Positions 29-21,975 of a DNA stretch of 31,632 nucleotides are shown piece by piece. The DNA is from a virus. How positions within the stretch are numbered: position 1 is the first letter of the stretch; the number at the start of each line of letters is the position of its first letter. The stretch is taken from positions 1-31,632 of the IMG/VR virus record IMGVR_UViG_3300035389_000005. One strand, written 5' to 3'. Both the position numbers and the translations under genes were made by a program. The notes under the pieces are model-generated. The model did not search any database. It was not told the DNA's origin and saw only the letters and a program-made list of their open reading frames with translations.

Positions 29-1537
29 CTACCATGACAGATTAATGCAGCCAGCAGAGTATTCTCCGGACAGAACCGGTGCCGACGGCTGCACGTCGCC
101 TGAAGCGACAAGGGATCCGGTACCGCTAAGAATCACGTCACCGAGCACCTCGACAAGACCGTCGGCTGTCAGATCTCCTGAGCCCACCAACGCAGCTGCT
201 CCTTGAACTTCTACCATTCCATCAGCATCCAGAAAGCCACTACCATCAAGAATGGCTACTGCCACAATTTCCAGTAACGCTGCAGCTGTAAGCTCTGAAC
301 TACCCTGAAGGACTACCTCACCCAGCACTTCCAAGATAGCAGCCGCATTGATATCTCCTGATCCGGTCATTGTTACGGAACCAGTGAGGGTTTGACTTGC
401 CGACTCTTCAGTGCCTATGCTATGCAGGTCATGGCGAACCATGTCTGCGTGTTCAATCTCAGCCCAATCAGCCGTTCCATGCGATAGCTTGACACGTACC
501 TCGTCAATAACACCTGGGAAATAATCATTTACGCTCCCATTATACGAACGAGAACCAATATTGAATGCGTCAGAGGATGTGCCAGAAAATGAAAAAGTTC
601 CTGCTGTTGCTGCACTAACACCATCAGTATAGCCATACAGTGTCGATGAAATAGTAAACCCGCAGGTATGGTGGAACCTTGAGTCGTTGCAGGATGACAT
701 GTCATTGCCAGTTAGATACTTGCTCCCGTTCGCAAATGAATGGGTCCTGTTACTGCCGCCCCAATATGAGTCTAGGTACAACTTGTGATTGGAAGCATCG
801 TTCTCACCACAATAGCCACCTACGTCATCTGATGGCCATGAGTTGAACTTGAAAAGTGCCGACATTGTGACTGCCGAAACTCCCGATGGATAATAGTTAG
901 AATCTGCAACATCTCCTACTTCACTATACTCATGTCCTTTTCCGTTATGAGAATCAACAATGGTTGCTCCATTGTCCGTTAACGTGTGGTTGCCGGTTGC
1001 ATCGGTAAGCGTGATCCCCATGTGACAGACCAGCTCGTAGTCCGCCCAGACCGTGGCTGGAGCTGATGCGTCCGTCGCTGATGAGTACCCATAGTACAAG
1101 TAGATATCCGTGGCGGCTGATGATGATACGGACGGTACGAGAACAAAGAACATAGGCGAATAGGGCTCGCTTGACTTCGAGAACTCAGCCCGTTCATGGA
1201 ACCGCAAGGTCGTCTCGTCGGAAGCCGTGAACCGGAAATCATACCCTGTGGACTCGACCTTGCTGAAATCGAACTCATATCCCATGAACTGCCAGTCATC
1301 CTGCCAGTCTGTAGTGGTACCAGGTTCCTTTGATGTAGAAGCCGTCAGGCACTTGTAATAGGATCCATCATTCTTGACAATGTCGCCAACTGAATAGGAG
1401 CCACTGCCGGACCATGCATTCTTGCTGCTGTCATAATAGAGCTTGACCAGCATCGGAAAATCCGTAAGCGTCGAGTCCACCTTTGCATGGTCAATGGTTA
1501 TCTTCCGTCTGTATCCATAGTTCGTCAACCATGCCAT
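29..1537 (-). CDS. DUF2341/LamG-like tail fibre protein with tandem repeats
   Basis: A 502-aa protein, probably a virion surface or carbohydrate-binding tail component. The N-terminus (GYRRKITIDH, TDFPMLVKL) is typical of DUF2341. Residues about 40-85 (SYSVGDIVKNDGSYYKC, then paired W residues) look like a chitin-binding type 3 (CBM5/12-like) insert. Residues about 170-375 look like a concanavalin/LamG-type lectin fold (FPGVIDEVRV). Residues about 384-483 are about five tandem 20-aa repeats built on GSGDLTADGLVEVLGDV. The last 19 residues (PSAPVL...CINLSW) resemble the first strand of a fibronectin type III domain, but the frame then hits TAG, so the protein seems to stop just inside an Fn3. 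The start has a good SD (GGAGGTGAG). The N-terminal 370 residues resemble the front half of the gene at 5426-7153. Family call fairly sure; exact role inferred from position. Confidence 0.75.
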   Translation of the reverse strand: MAWLTNYGYRRKITIDHAKVDSTLTDFPMLVKLYYDSSKNAWSGSGSYSVGDIVKNDGSYYKCLTASTSKEPGTTTDWQDDWQFMGYEFDFSKVESTGYDFRFTASDETTLRFHERAEFSKSSEPYSPMFFVLVPSVSSSAATDIYLYYGYSSATDASAPATVWADYELVCHMGITLTDATGNHTLTDNGATIVDSHNGKGHEYSEVGDVADSNYYPSGVSAVTMSALFKFNSWPSDDVGGYCGENDASNHKLYLDSYWGGSNRTHSFANGSKYLTGNDMSSCNDSRFHHTCGFTISSTLYGYTDGVSAATAGTFSFSGTSSDAFNIGSRSYNGSVNDYFPGVIDEVRVKLSHGTADWAEIEHADMVRHDLHSIGTEESASQTLTGSVTMTGSGDINAAAILEVLGEVVLQGSSELTAAALLEIVAVAILDGSGFLDADGMVEVQGAAALVGSGDLTADGLVEVLGDVILSGTGSLVASGDVQPSAPVLSGEYSAGCINLSW

Positions 1538-1552
1538 CTAGCTCACCTCCAC

Positions 1553-1990
1553 CTACAGGGTCACAGGCTTGATATCCTTCACCCCATCAGTCTCTTTCAC
1601 AAACCACCGGGCTGCAATCATGTTGGCTGCATCACTCGGATCCTGTTTGTAGCCGTCCACCACAATGTAATCATCACCTTCCAGAACCACCTTGCCATTC
1701 ACCGCCACCAGTTCTGCATCGTACTTTCTGGCCAGCCAGTGGACCTCGCTAATGGAAGGAGTCGGTTCATTGTTCTTATACCAGGCTTCCTCGGTTGGCA
1801 GCCCTTCATCTACTACATAGAAAAAAACCGCTCGGTCAACGGCGGTCACTTCTCCTGTTTCCAAAAAAGACTGGCGATACAGTTTAAGGCTCACCCCATC
1901 CGGCGTAGCCAGTAAAGTATCCTCCTCCTTGATCAGTGTCTTCACCCAGCTGCGGCCCAGCAGGTCCGCTTGCAATTCTGCTTTATTCAT
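1553..1990 (-). CDS. Hypothetical phage tail-region protein
   Basis: A 145-aa protein I do not recognise. It starts MNKAELQADLLGRSW with an SD AAGGAGG eight bases upstream and lies in the late operon between a conserved tail-fibre-like gene and the DUF2341 gene. It has no signal peptide or membrane segment. The middle (VNGKVVLEGDDYIVVDGY) suggests beta structure and the sequence is acidic. A terminator-like hairpin sits just upstream at 2012-2038, so this gene may be expressed by readthrough. Its position beyond the lysis genes suggests an accessory tail or host-range protein, but this is inference. Confidence 0.7.
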   Translation of the reverse strand: MNKAELQADLLGRSWVKTLIKEEDTLLATPDGVSLKLYRQSFLETGEVTAVDRAVFFYVVDEGLPTEEAWYKNNEPTPSISEVHWLARKYDAELVAVNGKVVLEGDDYIVVDGYKQDPSDAANMIAARWFVKETDGVKDIKPVTL

Positions 1991-2423: not shown

Positions 2424-3473
2424 TTAAACTCTCTTAACACCTACCAGCAAGGGAACCTTCTTGAAGCTCCTCTTATATACTGGCCTACCATCGTTGTGAA
2501 AATAACACTGTGTACTGGATCCCCCATCCAGGAACAGCCATTCCGTATGCTTGAATCCCTGGGATGCCATCTGATCCTCGAAGTCAGGTAGCATGTAGGC
2601 TACCCCCGGTTTTGTTGTGACCATGTAGACTGTGCCGTCCTTGAATGCCATCGCAGTCCTGGGACGTCTTTCGCCTTCCGGAACCGATGGACCAACTTCC
2701 TCATACTTACGGATAGTCGCATCAGAGCTGAACCCGCCGATTGCCCAAAGCATCTCCTTGTACCTTTGGTGATGGGTTATGTCCTGCACAGCTTGAATCT
2801 TAACAGTGCCGTCCGGATATGCGACCATACAGGCTCTGGATGGTCTCCATGAAACACCGGCATAGAAGAGTGTTCCTCGATCAAAAGCTACTCCAAGGAG
2901 ATTATCTCCACTAAAAAAGCACCCGTTGATTCCATCGAATCCAGGTGCATCCCATGTGGTTGTGTATTTCCTGAGCAAATATATGTCATGAGGCCGTGCT
3001 GCCTTGATGATGAGTCCTCCCTGGGTGTATGCTGGTTTCGGCTTGTAGGCGGCTGGCCAGCCTATCTCAAAGTCGTCGATCGGGAACCTGGTACCAGGAC
3101 AGGTCTTGTCCGCGTAGCGGTTGTGCCCGGAGATCTTCTTGATCGGGTAGATTGTCCGCAGCCACTCAATGAGCTCACGCAGTTTCTCCAGGAGTTTCTC
3201 AGGGACCAAATCTTTGTCATAGTTTCCTACCACGCAGATACCAATCGTGTTGTTGTGATCGGTGGTGTGCGCGCCCTGGTACTTCATGGGCCGACCCACT
3301 AGAATTACCACCTCATCGTCTACCATCTCAATTAAGAAATGGTACCCGACCTCACCCCATCCGTTCTCGTGGATGTGATACCTCCTGATGCCCTTGTAGT
3401 CCAGAACTTGGACATCGTCGGTCAAACTGTGATGTAGGATGATTTCCTCCATCGGGTGCTTCATCTCGTACAT
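2424..3473 (-). CDS. Endolysin: N-acetylmuramoyl-L-alanine amidase fused to NAGPA-like domain
   Basis: A 349-aa bifunctional-looking lysin. Residues about 8-130 are an Amidase_2/PGRP-type zinc amidase: IILHHS (zinc His), the YHFLIEM strand, NTIGICVVGNY, and GHNRYADKTCPG carrying the distal His and Cys ligands. This domain cleaves the MurNAc-L-Ala bond of peptidoglycan. Residues about 150-349 match a phosphodiester glycosidase (NAGPA/DUF2233) fold: GINGCFF, the GGFSSDATI block, RPRTAMAFKDGTVYMV, and the signature LFLDGGSSTQ. The gene directly follows the holin gene (2-nt gap), the usual holin-lysin cassette. The usual C-terminal cell-wall-binding repeats are absent; the NAGPA-like domain takes that place and could act on, or bind, wall glycopolymers. 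That role is inference. Confidence 0.85.
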   Translation of the reverse strand: MYEMKHPMEEIILHHSLTDDVQVLDYKGIRRYHIHENGWGEVGYHFLIEMVDDEVVILVGRPMKYQGAHTTDHNNTIGICVVGNYDKDLVPEKLLEKLRELIEWLRTIYPIKKISGHNRYADKTCPGTRFPIDDFEIGWPAAYKPKPAYTQGGLIIKAARPHDIYLLRKYTTTWDAPGFDGINGCFFSGDNLLGVAFDRGTLFYAGVSWRPSRACMVAYPDGTVKIQAVQDITHHQRYKEMLWAIGGFSSDATIRKYEEVGPSVPEGERRPRTAMAFKDGTVYMVTTKPGVAYMLPDFEDQMASQGFKHTEWLFLDGGSSTQCYFHNDGRPVYKRSFKKVPLLVGVKRV

Positions 3474-4073: not shown

Positions 4074-4625
4074 CTATACCAGTTCCAGTATTTCGTAGGT
4101 GACATTAGGCTCGGTTCCTAACAGACTTGAGTTATGGGCAACGAGCCGGAGGGTCGTGCTATCCACGAAACTGTAAGTCACAGTCGAGGAATAGAGGTCG
4201 GGGTTCGAGTCCTCATGAATATTGGCGTAATGGAAAAACGCATTCACGAGACACTTACTGGTATTCACAGCATTGATTGTCACATCACTAGGTGTTCCGT
4301 TATCGTCAATATTCTCTACCAGTCCTGTTTGTTTGCTCTTCACCGCGCTAGGCTCGAACTCAAGAACCAAAGCCTGTCCTGCAGGTGTTCCATTGCCATC
4401 CAGATAAACCGACGTAGCACTCAGTATCTTTGGTGAATCGAATGAAGCATTCTCAACAGCTCGAAAACTTAACATGAGAATAATCGAATTCCCAGGGATA
4501 ATCGTATTGATTGTATAGGTCGTTGTTCCGGAAACAATATCCACAACCTGAATGCTCCGGATGCTACCTAATGCCCTCGATCCCACTCCATCAGGAACAA
4601 ATCGGTTAATGTCTATACCGCTCAT
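4074..4625 (-). CDS. Hypothetical phage structural protein
   Basis: A 183-aa protein with mostly beta-type sequence and no membrane segment (MSGIDINRFVPDGVGSRALG at the start, then alternating hydrophobic strands such as TYTINTIIPGNSIILML). Its ATG shares one base with the stop of the preceding gene (TAATG), so the two are translationally coupled. Position between a baseplate-like protein and the lysis genes suggests a baseplate or fibre component. Family not recognised. Confidence 0.7.
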   Translation of the reverse strand: MSGIDINRFVPDGVGSRALGSIRSIQVVDIVSGTTTYTINTIIPGNSIILMLSFRAVENASFDSPKILSATSVYLDGNGTPAGQALVLEFEPSAVKSKQTGLVENIDDNGTPSDVTINAVNTSKCLVNAFFHYANIHEDSNPDLYSSTVTYSFVDSTTLRLVAHNSSLLGTEPNVTYEILELV

Positions 4626-5413
4626 TATGCATACACCACCGTTCTACTTGATGTCAGGACTACCCCCGCCGAGTTATAGGTGAGCGAGTATGTATCAGTC
4701 CTATAGACTGTGGTACCATCGCTCAGATAATATCTTTCAACAATCGTCTGGTAGTAGTTGTTGGCATCTACATTTGAATAATTTCGGTCCAACGCTAGGG
4801 TTGCATCAGCTCGGTCATATTCAATCTCCGTTGCCCTACCAATCGCGTCTTGGGTGATTACTGTACGTTCATACCTGTTCAGATCGTTCTCATCTTCAAA
4901 CGTCTGCTGTCCAAGCGACTTTGCAAATCCGCAGAGCGACTCGTCACCCCGTTCATCAGTAATATTGGCGTTTACGATGGTCGTGAATCCATTAGCCACC
5001 GCCACCTGAGCCAAAGCTAGTTCATACTTGGATGCGTCCCGAGTAAGACTTGGTACCGAGGGTGAAGCAGCAGCTGTTCCCTTCAGGACAGCCATCTCGA
5101 TCTTCCGGTTCGTATAATCGATCCTGGCTACGACCCGATCAATCCGTGGATTCCCGGCAGAGTTGTCATCGATGGTGAGTGTCTCTGCTGCATCAACCTG
5201 GTACATGCCACCCTGGATAGCAGCAAATCCTGTGTTCACTTTGACTGTCTTTGCTGGCGTATCGCTTTCTGTTACTTTGCACTCATTGTCAATCAGGGCG
5301 AGTACCCCATCCCCTATAACCTTCTTCATGTAATTCCGCAGTGTGGAAGCATTGTACTGCCGGTCTCCGGCGGTCGAATTGAAAAATCCTCCCCAGTTCG
5401 TTAAATCTGCCAT
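4625..5413 (-). CDS. Baseplate/tail fibre-anchor protein
   Basis: A 262-aa protein resembling a common Firmicutes siphophage structural family. The N-terminal 150 residues carry the typical series GDRQYNAS, KVNTGFAAIQGGMY, NPRIDRVVARIDYTNRKIEM and YELALAQVAVANG, followed by NITDERGDESLCG. The last 90 residues (YERTVITQDAIGRATEIEY onward) differ in character and may be a receptor-binding or trimerisation tail. The start follows GAGGAGGGAAAAAC. It lies just after the split Gp37-like tail gene, the usual place for baseplate upper proteins. Host binding is inferred from position. Confidence 0.7.
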   Translation of the reverse strand: MADLTNWGGFFNSTAGDRQYNASTLRNYMKKVIGDGVLALIDNECKVTESDTPAKTVKVNTGFAAIQGGMYQVDAAETLTIDDNSAGNPRIDRVVARIDYTNRKIEMAVLKGTAAASPSVPSLTRDASKYELALAQVAVANGFTTIVNANITDERGDESLCGFAKSLGQQTFEDENDLNRYERTVITQDAIGRATEIEYDRADATLALDRNYSNVDANNYYQTIVERYYLSDGTTVYRTDTYSLTYNSAGVVLTSSRTVVYA

Positions 5414-5425
5414 GTTTTTCCCTCC

Positions 5426-7153
5426 TCAATTCACCATGTCAGCAATCACCTTGGCCAGGGTCCGCTGCGGCGTTCCGAATGTAACCTGTATATCTCTCTT
5501 GTCACCATTCCTGGTTTCTTCCACCTCTGTGATTTGCACCGTGTACTCCGTGCCCTTGAATACCACCGTGACCAAGTCTCCTAGGTCGAAGTCGTCCGGA
5601 TACTGGAAGGGGTTACCCGCCAGACGGATTGTCCCCTGGATGGATTCCACTTTATAGTATTTCCCCTGCAATTCCTGATCAGCACGGTCCGAGAGCTGGT
5701 CAGACGTCGTGAGCTTGGAATCGGTAACGCTGATCTCCCTCCTGGAAAGGCCAGATGCGGATCCATATTCTCCCGATACCCCGTCGCCGTTCATGTAAAC
5801 CACATTCCGGTAATTACTGAGTGATACATGCCGGCTCATCTCCAAGATGTTGAAGAAATCTTCAGTGAACTGGACATCGTCCGATCGGTCCACCCCGACG
5901 ATGATGTCGTACCTGATCTTGGTGTTCGCGAGATCCAGGCTAATCTTGTGTCCATAGTCATCGATGGACAAGACCGGTTCCACCAGTCTGTCCAGTCTCT
6001 GATCTTTTTCCGATTCAGGAATCGTCTGAGCAGTGCCACGCGTCTGATCAGTCGCGATTGACAGGATGGAAATGTTTCTATCCGTATCCGTTGCAGACAC
6101 CATCAGCTCATCGATGAAGTCCTTGACGATGGATTCAGTTCTTGATACCTGCTCCGTCGCAGCGAAAGTGTTCAGCTCATCATTGAGCGACCGGAACTCC
6201 GCGTCGCGCCAAGCCTTGACCCGGCTGATACTCGATACCCGGACCTCTTCCATGATTCCATCGTAGAAGCGCTCAGCTGTACCAGGACGACCGAGACGCA
6301 GGTCCGTGTCATAGTTGCTTGTTACGGATGCCGAGCTGCTGTCTTCGGTCACTGGTGTGCCATCAGTGGCCTGTACGGCGATATCCGCACTCGTGGTCAT
6401 GTTCTCGCCGGTCATGAAGAAGGCTGCGTAGTTGACCGTGTCAGAAAAACTTACCGAAGCCTCGTCTGTGGATCCATCCGCCTCGTTGTATGCGGTCAGC
6501 GTGTCTGCTGTTGAATAATGGAATCCAAGATGTCTCTCGTCCGTAGTACCAAATCCATTACCTCCTACATCACCTTCCCAGAACATCATGTGCGAAAGGC
6601 TCGTGTCATCAGCCTTACCGAACATCATGAGTGTGAGTGCCGTGAATGTCTTGGTTTCCAGGTTGGTCTGGATGTAGTCATCCGCTCCATCGAAGCTCCT
6701 GGCGTCACCGTTCTTTCCGGAAGTGGCAGTAGTACCGTTGTTGGTGAGCGTCACACCGTTGCCGGTACTGTCGACCAGGCTGCTACCCATATGAGATACC
6801 AGCTCGTAGTCAGCATCCCAGACATTGGCCGCGTCCACCTGATCCGCAGCTGATGCATATTCGAAGTACATATACAGCTCAGTGTTGGCCAGTGATGAGA
6901 CCGATGGCACCTTGACGTGAAATACTGCCTTCTCCCCTGTATCGTCATATTTCTCGCGTTCGAACTTGAGCGGTGTCGTGTCGTCACTGGCCACGAAGAT
7001 GACGTCATATCCGTCTAAACGCGCCTTCGTGAAATCAAAGTTTGTGCTGTTCAGGATGACCGTAAGCGGAAAGTCTGCAAGACCTGCATCGATCTTCGTG
7101 TAATCCACCGTGATTTTCTTTCGGTATAGATAGTTCCCGTTATACCAGCTCAT
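5426..7153 (-). CDS. DUF2341/LamG-like domain fused to C-terminal half of Gp37-like tail protein
   Basis: A 575-aa hybrid. Residues 1-335 are a DUF2341 start (YLYRKKITVDYTKIDAG) and a LamG/concanavalin-type domain ending near FYDGIMEEVRVSSISR. From about residue 337 (SRTESIVKDFIDELM) it matches the C-terminal half of siphovirus ReqiPepy6 Gp37-like tail proteins: ATDQTRG, NYRNVVYMNGDG, GLSRREISV, a conserved LSDRADQELQ, then FDLGDLVTVVFKG and TFGTPQRTLAKVI. The matching N-terminal half of Gp37 is the separate upstream gene at 7173-7457, which stops before the junction. The natural protein is one chain of about 350 aa, so this looks like insertion of a lectin-like domain into the tail hub/spike gene. 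The SD is weak-to-moderate (GGGTGGGTGATCCAGT). Confidence 0.8.
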   Translation of the reverse strand: MSWYNGNYLYRKKITVDYTKIDAGLADFPLTVILNSTNFDFTKARLDGYDVIFVASDDTTPLKFEREKYDDTGEKAVFHVKVPSVSSLANTELYMYFEYASAADQVDAANVWDADYELVSHMGSSLVDSTGNGVTLTNNGTTATSGKNGDARSFDGADDYIQTNLETKTFTALTLMMFGKADDTSLSHMMFWEGDVGGNGFGTTDERHLGFHYSTADTLTAYNEADGSTDEASVSFSDTVNYAAFFMTGENMTTSADIAVQATDGTPVTEDSSSASVTSNYDTDLRLGRPGTAERFYDGIMEEVRVSSISRVKAWRDAEFRSLNDELNTFAATEQVSRTESIVKDFIDELMVSATDTDRNISILSIATDQTRGTAQTIPESEKDQRLDRLVEPVLSIDDYGHKISLDLANTKIRYDIIVGVDRSDDVQFTEDFFNILEMSRHVSLSNYRNVVYMNGDGVSGEYGSASGLSRREISVTDSKLTTSDQLSDRADQELQGKYYKVESIQGTIRLAGNPFQYPDDFDLGDLVTVVFKGTEYTVQITEVEETRNGDKRDIQVTFGTPQRTLAKVIADMVN

Positions 7154-7172
7154 ACTGGATCACCCACCCTCA

Positions 7173-7457
7173 TTACGTCACCTGCTTGATCCTGTACGCA
7201 AGGATACCCAACAACCCGGTACCTTTCGCTATGATCACATTGCCCTTCTTGTCTTGAGAGTCATCAATGTCTACGATGATTCCGCAGGTATCATCATCAA
7301 GGGCCACGATACGTTCCTCCTGCAGGAGACCTTGTGCTGCAGCATTACTGACGGTTATCTCGAAGCTACCAGCGCCCCGAAGTTCTCTCTTGAATCTACA
7401 TTTATAATCTGTAATCACACCCAGCTGAGTCAAGGTTTGATCATACACCCTTATCAT
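7173..7457 (-). CDS. N-terminal half of split Gp37-like tail protein
   Basis: A 94-aa product beginning MIRVYDQTLTQLG. The ATG overlaps the TGA stop of the Dit gene (ATGA) and follows GGGGTGATCGC, so this start is preferred over the in-frame ATG ten codons upstream at 7487. The sequence matches the N-terminal part of Gp37-like tail proteins: DYKCRFKRELRGAGSFEITV, LLQEERIVALDDD, CGIIVDIDDSQD, then KGTGLLGILAYRI. In intact homologues the chain continues past this point; here it ends four residues later (KQVT, stop). The missing C-terminal half lies behind a LamG-like domain in the next gene. The two products may assemble together, or the gene may be a recombination remnant. Confidence 0.75.
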   Translation of the reverse strand: MIRVYDQTLTQLGVITDYKCRFKRELRGAGSFEITVSNAAAQGLLQEERIVALDDDTCGIIVDIDDSQDKKGNVIIAKGTGLLGILAYRIKQVT

Positions 7458-8368
7458 GCGATCACCCCACTGTAAGGAGATAGCCATTTACGCCGGTACT
7501 TCAGTAGCGCAGTGGTCCTTGAAGTGTCATCGCTTGAGTACTTAATTTCATTGATACCGCGCCTGAGCGTGATCCCGAAATCATTGAAAGTGGGATCCAC
7601 ATACTTGAACGCATTCTCCTCAACTCCACTGGATACGATGACAAGCCTTGGATTTCTATAATCCGTGTTCATAATAATCTGATCCCCGGCTGCCAGTGTC
7701 TTGTTGAGTTTCAGCTTCTCACCATAGGTCAGGTTCTCGATGACTGGATTCGTCGACAAACCTTCGAACTCGATGATGATTGGTGTCGACACGTCTCCGG
7801 TGTTGTTAATCTCCACGCCACCATCTGATACCTGACCAAACTCGAAGGTATCTGAGAACTCAATCGGAAACTCGAAAAGATCCACCTGGGATTCCAAAAG
7901 TACCGAAATCTCCTCCTGATCCTGCCAAAGCGGTTCCGGCAGCATGAAGGTCACCATTGATCTCTGGAAGCGGCTTGTGCGGTTTTCTGGATCCGATGCA
8001 TGGGATGGTCCCTTCCTCAGATAAGCCTCAATTTCCTTGGGCACCAGGCCGGTTCTTGAATACTGGAGCTTGAACATTTCCAGGTTGTCCACCGAAAGGT
8101 ACTCCCCATCAAAGAACCGGCATAGAGCAGCCCTCTTGCTAAGATATGATGTTTCTGTCGTACCGGTGATCCCGATTGTTATCCCCCAGAGTTTAGAGCC
8201 CAGGGTCTTCTGGGTCACACTGATGCCCCTTTGCAAGTAGCCTTTGCTTGTGACTATGTTATATTCGAGTCCGCCGACATCCCCGAAGTTCAGAAGGCGG
8301 TACTCGTTCTGCGGCATGAGGTCTAATTCATCCCCGTAAGGATTGATGATTTTAAGTTCTTTGCTCAT
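7454..8368 (-). CDS. Distal tail protein (Dit), siphovirus tail family
   Basis: A 304-aa protein of the Sipho_tail (Dit) type, which forms the hexameric ring linking tail tube to baseplate. Family-like features are the N-terminal LKIINPYGDELDL, the QRGISVTQKTLGSKLWGITI strand pair, the central ENRTSRFQRSMVTFMLPEPLW block (Dit proteins typically have a pre-sheet 'F.....PFWY' motif), and a C-terminal galectin-like part with NTGDVSTPIIIEFEG and LNKTLAAGDQIIMNTD. It lies directly after the tape-measure gene and overlaps the following gene by ATGA, the standard order. Length is usual. Confidence 0.85.
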   Translation of the reverse strand: MSKELKIINPYGDELDLMPQNEYRLLNFGDVGGLEYNIVTSKGYLQRGISVTQKTLGSKLWGITIGITGTTETSYLSKRAALCRFFDGEYLSVDNLEMFKLQYSRTGLVPKEIEAYLRKGPSHASDPENRTSRFQRSMVTFMLPEPLWQDQEEISVLLESQVDLFEFPIEFSDTFEFGQVSDGGVEINNTGDVSTPIIIEFEGLSTNPVIENLTYGEKLKLNKTLAAGDQIIMNTDYRNPRLVIVSSGVEENAFKYVDPTFNDFGITLRRGINEIKYSSDDTSRTTALLKYRRKWLSPYSGVIA

Positions 8369-8371
8369 GAT

Positions 8372-10264
8372 CTACAACCCCAATTCATACGCAAGGTCCA
8401 TATTCCCTTGCTTATTAATGTTCGCCATTTCATCCTCATCGACAGTCGTCTTGATGTCGTAATACTGGTTGACGGTCATAACCTTGCTTTCCTTCTCAGC
8501 CATTGGGTTGTTTTCAACCTCTTTCAATGCGTTCAGCATGTCAGCTGTAATGTCAGCACTTGAGATATCCCCTTTTTCCGCAAGAGTCTTCTCGAGTTTT
8601 GCCATGATCTCGGCATTCACAAGTTCATTAAGCGTGATTCCTCTGTCACCGGGATCCTCTTCCTCATCATCTGTAGATTTGCCCGTCCCAGAGGAGCTAC
8701 CAGTACTACCGCCAAATGATGGCATATACGAACTACCACCTCCGGATCCACTGTATCCGCCAGTTGGAATAGAGTCATCAGGTTCAGCTGTCGGATCATA
8801 TCCCGATCCCCATGCGCCAATTTCCTGTTTACCAGGCTTGTCTTCTTGAACAAGTTCTACTTCCTCAAATTCGTCCATTGGTTCAATACCGTGCTGTGCC
8901 CTTACCTTGTTGATTTCCCTAATGATCACGTTTACGAACCGAATCATGCTGTTGATCCCATTCTCAATGATCCGCAGGATGGAATCCCAGACAGCGCGTC
9001 CGATTTCCTTCACAGCTTCCCAGGCTTCTCCCCACTGCCCAGTGATTACAGCTTTGATGATTTTGAATATCTGCTCTATAATTGTGGCGAAGTTTCTCAG
9101 CTGCGCCATCATGGTGACCAGATGGCCGGCTACTATATCGTCAATGAGGTCCCAGCCCCATGAAAAGAAATCTACAATGGTCTGGACTACAAATCCAATA
9201 CTGTCCCCAATGTCCTGCCAGAGAGCAATCACATTGCTCCTGAACTCATCATTCGTCTGGAACAAGTTAATGACGCCTAGGACCAGTGCAGCGATTACAG
9301 CCACAACCAATCCTATCGGACCGGTCATGAGCTTGAATGCGGCTCCAACCAGTTTAAGTTTCCCTGGTAAACCGCTCGCAATCGACAGCACCTTTGAGAG
9401 CCCCATAAGAACCGGACCGATGGACGCTGCAAACATGGCCAGCTTCACGATCATCTTCTTGGTCTCTTCATCCAAATTGGAAATCGCCTGGATCTTCTCG
9501 TTTATGGCTGTCACTATCTCAGTAAACTTTGGTAGCAGAATCTCTCCGAACGTGGCTGCTAATTCCTTCAGGGATTCAGTGAACACCCGCATCTGGTTGG
9601 CAGCTCCACCACCAGTCCTTTCGAAGTCTCCATGAGCGTTCGAACTCAGATCCATAATGTAGGCATACCTGAGCTGCACCAGCTCGGCCTGGGTCATTTC
9701 CTTAGTTGTCTTGTTGATACCGTTGGCCAGAGAAAACGCGTCCAGGTTAGCCTGGGTCATAACATAACCCAGTTTTTTAAGTGATTCTGTCTCTCCAGTG
9801 AATATGCCCACTGCTGCGGTCTGGGCTTCATCAAGGCTGATATTCTTAAATGATGCCCAATCTCCAGCCAGTCCCACCAGCGACATGCTCATGTCCGTTG
9901 CTGCATCAATTGGTAACTTCATGCTGGTTGCCATGTCACCAAACATCGCAGCCATATCTAAAGAACTGCCTTTCGCTATACCGAATGACTTGAGAGTAGT
10001 ATTGCTCCACTCTTTCACCTTGTCGGAATTCTTGCCAAACGCCACCTCCACTTTGTTCATGGATTCCTGCATATCTGAGGCATATTTGATTGAGGCTATC
10101 CCCGCACCAAGAATTGGCATAGTGAGATGAGTCGTGAAAGCACGTCCCATATCTGCTAGGCTTCGGCTCCACTTCTTCATCTTGCGCTGCAGAGTTTGAA
10201 ATTTCTTCTCCAGGTCACTGAAATCAGCACCTGCCCTGAGCATTAGGTTCCGTACAATAGGCAT
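8372..10264 (-). CDS. Phage tail tape measure protein
   Basis: A 630-aa protein that sets tail length and is threaded inside the tail tube. The N-terminal 50 residues hold a helical KKFQTLQRKMKKWSRSLADMG segment. Next comes the PhageMin_Tail-type region (SMNKVEVAFGKNSDKVKEW, AAMFGDMATSMKLP, AQTAAVGIFTGETESLKKLG, YAYIMDLSSNAHGDFERT). Hydrophobic segments follow near residues 305-340 (GPIGLVVAVIAALVLGVINLF), and a Gly/Ser-rich linker near 515-545. It starts immediately after the stop of the frameshifted tail chaperone (TAGATG), the universal order in siphophages. It is on the short side for a tape measure, consistent with a short-to-medium tail. Confidence 0.92.
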   Translation of the reverse strand: MPIVRNLMLRAGADFSDLEKKFQTLQRKMKKWSRSLADMGRAFTTHLTMPILGAGIASIKYASDMQESMNKVEVAFGKNSDKVKEWSNTTLKSFGIAKGSSLDMAAMFGDMATSMKLPIDAATDMSMSLVGLAGDWASFKNISLDEAQTAAVGIFTGETESLKKLGYVMTQANLDAFSLANGINKTTKEMTQAELVQLRYAYIMDLSSNAHGDFERTGGGAANQMRVFTESLKELAATFGEILLPKFTEIVTAINEKIQAISNLDEETKKMIVKLAMFAASIGPVLMGLSKVLSIASGLPGKLKLVGAAFKLMTGPIGLVVAVIAALVLGVINLFQTNDEFRSNVIALWQDIGDSIGFVVQTIVDFFSWGWDLIDDIVAGHLVTMMAQLRNFATIIEQIFKIIKAVITGQWGEAWEAVKEIGRAVWDSILRIIENGINSMIRFVNVIIREINKVRAQHGIEPMDEFEEVELVQEDKPGKQEIGAWGSGYDPTAEPDDSIPTGGYSGSGGGSSYMPSFGGSTGSSSGTGKSTDDEEEDPGDRGITLNELVNAEIMAKLEKTLAEKGDISSADITADMLNALKEVENNPMAEKESKVMTVNQYYDIKTTVDEDEMANINKQGNMDLAYELGL

Positions 10265-20805: not shown

Positions 20806-21975
20806 TCATGCTTTTCTAGCCACACGCTTATTATCCTTAAATGTCACAACAAGATTTTCTTCTACATCATCCTCAGTTGTTGTCAAAGTTCCCCTTTCAA
20901 GAGAAAGTAAGTCTTCAATGTCATCAGCATATAGCGGTTCTCCAAAATTTGCTAATTCCGCTACAATTTGCTTCCCAGTTAAAGTTTCATGTTCATACAA
21001 AAGCTCAATCGACTTCCTAAATAGTTGAGGCTTGTTAACTTGCCAGTCATTATCAAATGGCTCACACTTTCTCCAACCTCTATACGAAATCTTCTTCATC
21101 AAACTCTGATAAACATTTGAATTAATTCTGCCTAAATGCTTAGCTCTCATTACCATTGCAGCGATGGAAACTTTCCATTTTGCTTTTAAACGTTTGTAGT
21201 CCTCAATATCATTCGGATTAATAAGGTCTGAATAAAAGGAATCCCTCGGCATCAAGAATGCAGCCGCAAATTGGTTCGCTTCCTTTTCAACCTTTTTTTG
21301 TTCCTCAGTAGATAGTTCCTTAATATTTGCTAAAGCACGATGCAAAACTATGTGTCCTAACTCATGAGCTGCATCAAAATTCCTTCGTACTAATGTGTCC
21401 TTATCTGTGCCTAAAACAATGCAATACTGGACTACACCTTTTGTATTGTGAATTTGAGTAAATGCATCAATTTTGTCTGTGCCGGTTTTCAATGAAGATA
21501 CAATAATTCCGTTATTTTCAAGTAATCCTACCATGTTAGTAATAGGTCCAAGACCCAAACCCCAAGATGCCCTTAGGACAGCTGCCTGTTCTTCAGGATC
21601 ATGAATATTGTCTGGATCAGATACAGGCAGTTTCAACTCTGGAAAGTTCAAATACTCATTTAAAAAATTATACAAAGTAACAATCGTACTCGTTTTCACC
21701 TCTTGTGTGCTCAAGTCCAATGACTTAGCACTTCTCATAGATCTGAAAAATGTATTCTCCACCTTGGGAGCATTATCACTACTCTGTTCAAAAAAAGATT
21801 TGGGAAATCGCAGTGTTGTAATAATCTGAAACAGTACACTAGGTTTAGGTGTAATCGCATTTCTTTCGTATTGTGACACAGCTTGTTTGCTCACGTCTAT
21901 CTTTTCAGCTAATTCACTTATTGTCAGGCCTCTAAATATTCTTGCCTTCTTAAGCATATCGCCGTTAAAAACCAT
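20806..21975 (-). CDS. XRE regulator fused to ImmA/IrrE metallopeptidase
   Basis: A 389-aa two-domain protein. Residues about 7-60 are an XRE helix-turn-helix (LKKARIFRGLTISELAEKIDVSKQAVSQYE). From about 130 an ImmA/IrrE (Peptidase_M78) domain follows with FDAAHELGHIVLH; the HExxH zinc motif lies at 204-208 and the third-ligand helix is EKEANQFAAAFLMP near 231-243. Such proteins cleave or regulate partner repressors, or act as the antitoxin-like half of toxin-antitoxin and anti-phage pairs. About 100 C-terminal residues extend beyond the peptidase. ATG at 21975 follows TAGGAG. It lies 24 nt after the DUF5986-like gene, and the two share a promoter. Confidence 0.9.
   Translation of the reverse strand: MVFNGDMLKKARIFRGLTISELAEKIDVSKQAVSQYERNAITPKPSVLFQIITTLRFPKSFFEQSSDNAPKVENTFFRSMRSAKSLDLSTQEVKTSTIVTLYNFLNEYLNFPELKLPVSDPDNIHDPEEQAAVLRASWGLGLGPITNMVGLLENNGIIVSSLKTGTDKIDAFTQIHNTKGVVQYCIVLGTDKDTLVRRNFDAAHELGHIVLHRALANIKELSTEEQKKVEKEANQFAAAFLMPRDSFYSDLINPNDIEDYKRLKAKWKVSIAAMVMRAKHLGRINSNVYQSLMKKISYRGWRKCEPFDNDWQVNKPQLFRKSIELLYEHETLTGKQIVAELANFGEPLYADDIEDLLSLERGTLTTTEDDVEENLVVTFKDNKRVARKA

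What the first reader, a model, noticed from the sequence alone, without database searches (positions are those of the whole stretch)
5426..7457. Gp37-like tail protein split by an inserted DUF2341/LamG-like domain
The N-terminal half (94 aa, 7173-7457) and C-terminal half (from about residue 337 of the 5426-7153 gene, about nt 6145) of a Gp37-like tail protein are in separate genes. The gap between them is filled by about 335 aa of DUF2341/LamG-like sequence with its own start codon. An essential hub/spike protein appears rebuilt as a two-chain complex carrying a sugar-binding head, possibly a new route to change host range.
Basis: partly seen in the sequence, partly recalled or inferred. Interest (0 to 1): 0.75.

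Follow-up and report, generated by a model that had tools for sequence, protein, structure and literature searches.

The report
Two-chain phage hub with lectin insert
In this bacterial virus the protein that plugs the tip of its tail is made as two separate chains, because a piece carrying a probable sugar-binding domain and its own start signal sits inside the gene; relatives show that the split is real, old and kept by selection, and it resembles a split already known from phage lambda.

Summary
The 94-aa gene (7173-7457) matches the first domain of the Gp37-like tail hub. The 575-aa gene (5426-7153) carries DUF2341 and a LamG jelly roll, then the rest of the hub. Intact homologues align to both pieces; only their 8-12-residue linker is missing. 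In about 170 hub homologues the halves lie in one open frame. The closest intact one (L106) has a short loop exactly there.

The split is not an error or a dead gene. A close relative (L005) keeps it with a different stop codon and dN/dS about 0.06 on the 94-aa chain. A distant relative (L186, 53% there) has the same break plus an extra gene in the gap. That gene and its DUF2341/LamG chain match, in order, the window's own fibre module (1553-1990, 29-1537). So a fibre module, bringing its own start codon, was probably inserted between hub domains HDI and HDII.

Lambda (gpL/gpJ) and RcGTA (gp13/gp15) hubs are split at the same boundary, and sugar-binding inserts in hubs ("evolved Tals") are known. 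This is an independent variant of a known kind, unusual because the donor module and an intact sister can be seen. Sugar binding, two-chain assembly and host-range change are inferred.

The parts
7173..7457 (-). Hub chain 1 (94 aa): hub domain I (D1/HDI, tail-tube-like barrel) of a Gp37-like hub
   Evidence: PF14594 positions 2-97, E 7.8e-8; 40% identical to residues 3-98 of the intact hub L106, ending just after its last HDI helix; dN 0.038, dS 0.635 against L005
5426..7153 (-). Hub chain 2 (575 aa): DUF2341 + LamG + hub domains II-IV
   Evidence: Pfam and PHROG hits; full-length relative L186:5743-7560, 42% identical
6158..7153 (-). Inserted cassette, residues 1-332: DUF2341 then LamG/ConA-like jelly roll
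   Evidence: DUF2341 E 7.4e-9, LamG_3 E 0.0016; aligns end to end with other phage DUF2341/LamG proteins; model matches arabinanase AbnA domain 4, Z 18 over about 187 residues
5426..6145 (-). Hub domains II-IV (C-terminal part of the Gp37-like hub)
   Evidence: PF14594 positions 116-370; 46% identical to L186; about 35% to the intact hub L106
7154..7172 (-). 19-nt gap with RBS-like GGTGATCC (7157-7164) 3 nt before the ATG; same motif and position in L005
7454..8368 (-). Dit (distal tail protein), 4-nt ATGA overlap with hub chain 1
   Evidence: SPP1_Dit PF22768 E 5.2e-8, phrog_33
8372..10264 (-). Tape measure protein
   Evidence: phrog_1535 E 3.8e-48
4625..5413 (-). Structural protein that follows the hub in relatives too
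   Evidence: phrog_1220 E 3.1e-46; same position in L106 and L186
29..1537 (-). Second DUF2341/LamG protein of the phage (fibre-like), DUF2341 interrupted by a CBM5/12 insert; probable relative of the donor of the hub cassette
   Evidence: groups with the L186 hub cassette in the tree
1553..1990 (-). Companion gene (145 aa) of the DUF2341/LamG fibre; its homologue lies inside the hub split in L186
   Evidence: 44-46% identity to L186:5315-5734; no Pfam or PHROG family

Best explanation
The baseplate hub (Tal, gp27-like) of a siphophage with relatives in Bacillota is made as two chains. Chain 1 is hub domain I; chain 2 carries a DUF2341 + LamG head followed by hub domains II-IV. The arrangement most likely arose when the 5' part of a tail-fibre module (companion gene plus DUF2341/LamG gene, with its own ribosome-binding site and start) was inserted into the loop between HDI and HDII of a formerly single gene, ending in frame with HDII; in this phage the companion gene is absent from the break. 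Inferred: both chains co-assemble as trimers on the Dit ring, HDI and HDIV forming the last tube ring, as gpL and gpJ do in lambda, and the jelly roll points outward and binds a host surface glycan.
For: Both pieces match complementary parts of one profile. Intact homologues keep the halves together; the closest, L106, has only a loop between the two helices that flank the insert site. L005 keeps the split with another stop codon (TGA, not TAA), the same RBS-like motif, and purifying selection on chain 1. L186 has the same break at 53% (chain 1) and 46% (C part) identity, with a gene in the gap that matches the companion of the window's own DUF2341/LamG fibre. The split pair and L106 form one clade, 100/100. 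The L186 hub cassette groups with the window's fibre cassette (93/82) and shares its CBM5/12 insert. The intact fold is a hub: Bxb1 tail tip Z 25.0, 80alpha Z 17.8, T4 gp27 Z 14.8. Two-chain hubs split at HDI/HDII are seen in lambda and RcGTA (PMC10721106).
Against: The model of chain 2 is poor in its C half, where its alignment had almost no rows. Only three contigs show the split, two of them incomplete around it, and no cultured phage does. The insertion history rests on L186 and one moderately supported fork. The LamG fold alone does not prove sugar binding.
Confidence: 0.8

Rival explanations
1. Artefact or decay: the gene is broken by a sequencing error or mutation and the 94-aa piece is a remnant.
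For: A plasmid-borne prophage hub in Peribacillus (L024) is cut in two genes by what looks like a simple frameshift near the same place, so accidental breaks occur.
Against: The split recurs in L005 and L186, with different stop codons and, in L186, a whole gene in the gap; chain 1 has dN/dS about 0.06; its core is conserved at 53% over long divergence. Peribacillus keeps all the sequence, merely shifted in frame.
Confidence: 0.04
2. The DUF2341/LamG block is only structural (spacer, plug or assembly domain, like the HDII insertions of T5, RcGTA and lambda) and not a receptor-binding head.
For: Large HDII insertions close the tube in T5 and GTA (PMC10038345); LamG folds are often not lectins; no conserved glycan site was tested.
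Against: The same cassette family occurs in a separate fibre-like protein of this phage and in many other phage proteins without a hub; its best structural match is the sugar-binding domain of an arabinanase; cassette type differs between window and L186.
Confidence: 0.25
3. The insert is a tail-fibre gene whose frame happens to run into the hub C part; chain 2 works mainly as a fibre and another protein supplies the hub.
For: The cassette is a fibre-like family and has its own start.
Against: Dit, chain 1, chain 2 and the next structural gene lie in the order of intact relatives; the hub C part is conserved at 46% to L186. No other Gp37-like hub was seen among the window genes scanned.
Confidence: 0.05

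Closest known systems
Phage lambda gpL + gpJ (and RcGTA gp13 + gp15) two-chain hubs (PMC10721106, PMC11101478)
   Same: HDI on one chain, HDII-IV on a second; extra domains at the N-terminus of the second chain; extra genes between the two (K and I in lambda, one gene in L186)
   Different: Here it arises inside the Sipho_Gp37 family, whose other surveyed members are single-chain; no iron-sulfur domain was recognised on chain 1; the extra domains are DUF2341/LamG, from a visible fibre module
Evolved Tals and evolved Dits with carbohydrate-binding modules (PMC7291167)
   Same: Carbohydrate-binding-type domain placed in the gp27-like hub of a Gram-positive siphophage
   Different: As far as read, evolved Tals are single chains; here the insert carries a start codon and breaks the gene; the module is DUF2341/LamG, not a BppA-type CBM
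Methanoculleus virus Blf4 / L4768 gp33 and IMG/VR L204, L208, L209
   Same: DUF2341 + LamG on the same polypeptide as a Gp37-like hub
   Different: The cassette is fused in front of an intact hub (D1 + C); independent by hub tree and cassette tree
Intact Gp37-like hub of IMGVR_UViG_3300001335_000123 (L106)
   Same: Closest intact hub; same Dit-hub overlap and following gene
   Different: One chain, short loop at the insert site, C-terminal Collar domain

Membership tests
Sipho_Gp37 / gp27-like baseplate hub (Tal) | Sequence match over hub domains I-IV | tested here: met
   Positions 2-97 on chain 1 and 116-370 on chain 2, both above the family cut-off
Sipho_Gp37 / gp27-like baseplate hub (Tal) | gp27-like four-domain fold | tested here: met
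   Intact sister L106 model pLDDT 92.6; Bxb1 Z 25.0, 80alpha Z 17.8, p2 Z 15.4, T4 gp27 Z 14.8. Tested on the sister, not on the two chains
Sipho_Gp37 / gp27-like baseplate hub (Tal) | Gene directly after tape measure and Dit | tested here: met
   TMP 8372-10264, Dit 7454-8368, then chains 1 and 2
Sipho_Gp37 / gp27-like baseplate hub (Tal) | Single polypeptide (usual, not strictly defining: lambda and RcGTA hubs are two-chain) | tested here: not met
   Two genes here, in L005 and in L186; about 170 homologues have one
Lambda-type two-chain hub (gpL/gpJ) | HDI separate from HDII-IV | tested here: met
   Break falls after the last HDI helix of the L106 model and before the next long helix; domain names from PMC10721106
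Lambda-type two-chain hub (gpL/gpJ) | Chain 1 with gpL-type Fe-S C-terminal domain (four cysteines) | tested here: not met
   Chain 1 is 94 aa with two cysteines and only a Gp37 hit; it works like lambda's arrangement but is not a gpL
Evolved Tal (CBM-decorated hub) | Carbohydrate-binding-type domain inserted in the gp27-like hub | tested here: met
   LamG/ConA-like jelly roll at the HDI/HDII linker
Evolved Tal (CBM-decorated hub) | Binding to host cells or glycans | not testable with these tools
   No binding data
Two chains assembled in the virion | Both chains present in one tail-tip complex | not testable with these tools

The most novel reading that the evidence does not exclude
The split hub is an exchange dock: with HDI on its own gene, the second gene starts with a fibre module that can be swapped with the phage's own downstream DUF2341/LamG fibre module by recombination, so the receptor-binding head of an essential hub can change while HDI stays fixed; and lambda-type two-chain hubs may have arisen through such insertions.
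Probability: 0.25. Interest if true: 0.7.

Novelty: new variant of a known kind. Interest (0 to 1): 0.5.

Why it matters
Lambda and RcGTA hubs are split at the HDI/HDII boundary, and how such splits arise is not told in the papers read. Here an intact sister, a split with the companion gene still inside, and a split without it can be lined up with a donor-type module in the same phage, which makes the origin testable. It also gives a candidate example of a lectin-like head placed directly on an essential hub chain with its own start codon.

Tried and rejected
Programmed frameshift or readthrough joining the chains: rejected, the second frame has a TGA just before its ATG and two stops follow chain 1. 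Pseudogene: rejected (L186). Recurrence of the split in about 170 other hubs and 398 genomes of one phylum: none; other broken cases were frameshift-like (L024, L097) or contig ends (L063). Blf4 gp32/gp33 first looked like the same split, but gp32 has no Gp37 match and gp33 carries an intact hub behind the cassette. Fold matches of the LamG model to clostridial neurotoxin binding domains are 7-13% identical and reflect the shared jelly roll only; this is no toxin. Sequence search of the hub profile against the PDB: no hits. Host: not identified; terminase 67% to Paenibacillus phage Wanderer. A PubMed Central search for DUF2341 in phage tails found nothing relevant.

Full report
What was checked. 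The window is a 31.6 kb virus contig with terminase, portal, protease, major head protein, tail genes, an endolysin and an integrase: a temperate siphophage. Its terminase is 67% identical to Paenibacillus phage Wanderer. The stated genes exist. The 94-aa start at 7457 is right; it overlaps the Dit stop.

The split is real. One Pfam family, Sipho_Gp37 (PF14594), is covered by two genes: positions 2-97 by the 94-aa product and 116-370 by residues 335-561 of the 575-aa product; phrog_538 says the same. In an alignment with hub homologues, only the short linker between ...LKGVAAQRL and ...ETVMKHYV is absent. In its place stand a stop, 19 nt with an RBS-like GGTGATCC, a start, and about 332 aa of DUF2341 and LamG.

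It is rare. Scans for the hub C part gave 80 genome and 80 viral loci; nearly all hold both halves in one frame. The exceptions are a frameshift-like case (L097), a contig end (L063) and, from another search, a frameshifted plasmid prophage (L024). Across 170 hubs none has a linker more than 35 aa longer than the norm. None of 398 genomes of one phylum showed it.

It is old and kept. L005 has Dit, chain 1, and chain 2's start in the same order; chain 1 is 88/94 identical with 36 nucleotide differences, dN 0.038 and dS 0.635, the stop is TGA instead of TAA, and the RBS-like motif is identical. L186 is a far relative: Dit, chain 1 (94 aa, 53%), a 139-aa gene, then a 605-aa DUF2341/LamG/hub chain whose hub part is 46% identical. 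L106 is the closest intact hub: same Dit overlap, same following gene, a short loop at the break. Window, L186 and L106 form one clade with full support; the order among the three is unresolved.

Where the insert came from. The 139-aa gene inside the L186 hub is 44-46% identical to the window's 1553-1990, which lies directly before the window's other DUF2341/LamG protein, 29-1537. A third phage contig (L195) has a related gene before a DUF2341/LamG gene. L186's hub cassette shares with 29-1537 a CBM5/12-like insert in DUF2341 and groups with it in a cassette tree (93/82), apart from the window's own hub cassette. The simplest reading is insertion of a fibre module, start codon included, into the HDI/HDII loop, followed by loss or exchange. 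DUF2341/LamG also sits in front of an intact hub in Methanoculleus virus Blf4 and three related contigs; by both trees that is an independent event.

Structure. AlphaFold2 of L106 (pLDDT 92.6) gives a gp27-like hub: Bxb1 Z 25.0, Douge Z 24.8, HFTV1 Z 21.9, 80alpha Z 17.8, T4 gp27 Z 14.8. Chain 1 corresponds to residues 3-98, that is the first barrel and its closing helix; the insert sits in the loop before the next long helix. The model of chain 2 is good for DUF2341, fair for LamG and poor for the hub part, whose rows could not be aligned together with the LamG rows; the LamG part matches ConA-like sugar-binding domains, best arabinanase AbnA domain 4.

Comparison with the known. Hubs of T5, T4 and 80alpha hold HDI-HDIV in one protein; in lambda HDI is on gpL and HDII-IV on gpJ, and RcGTA is alike, with genes in between (PMC10721106; PMC11101478; PMC13243795). 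Tal hubs with carbohydrate-binding modules are known (PMC7291167). So both ingredients are known; their combination in a Gp37-like hub, with a visible source for the insert, is new to me and was not found in the papers searched.

Shown: split, site, recurrence, selection on chain 1, relation of the cassette to a fibre module. Inferred: co-assembly, glycan binding, host-range effect, order of insertion and exchange.

Noticed in passing
window 2424-3473 (-): Endolysin-like protein with an N-terminal Amidase_2 and a C-terminal NAGPA (phosphodiester glycosidase) domain, an unusual pairing to me.
   Followed up: no
window 29-1537 (-): Fibre-like protein whose DUF2341 domain is interrupted by a CBM5/12 module, followed by LamG and a tail of GSG-type repeats.
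   Followed up: partly
window 1553-1990 (-); L186:5315-5734; L195:5729-6001: Small protein family without Pfam or PHROG match that precedes DUF2341/LamG proteins in three phages; possibly an assembly or attachment partner.
   Followed up: partly
L106:1280-2779: Intact Gp37-like hub extended at its C-terminus by a Collar domain and a Gp10_C-like domain.
   Followed up: no
L007:7923-10100; L204:1476-3632; L208:5917-8094; L209:5776-7935: DUF2341/LamG fused in front of an intact Gp37-like hub, in a methanogen virus and three related contigs.
   Followed up: partly
window 20806-21975 (-): Single protein matching both phage repressor-type regulators and a metallo-protease family, as in fused repressor/ImmA-like proteins.
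   Followed up: no
L024:2166-3322 (Peribacillus plasmid NZ_CP085515): Gp37-like hub broken in two genes by an apparent frameshift and annotated as two family members.
   Followed up: yes
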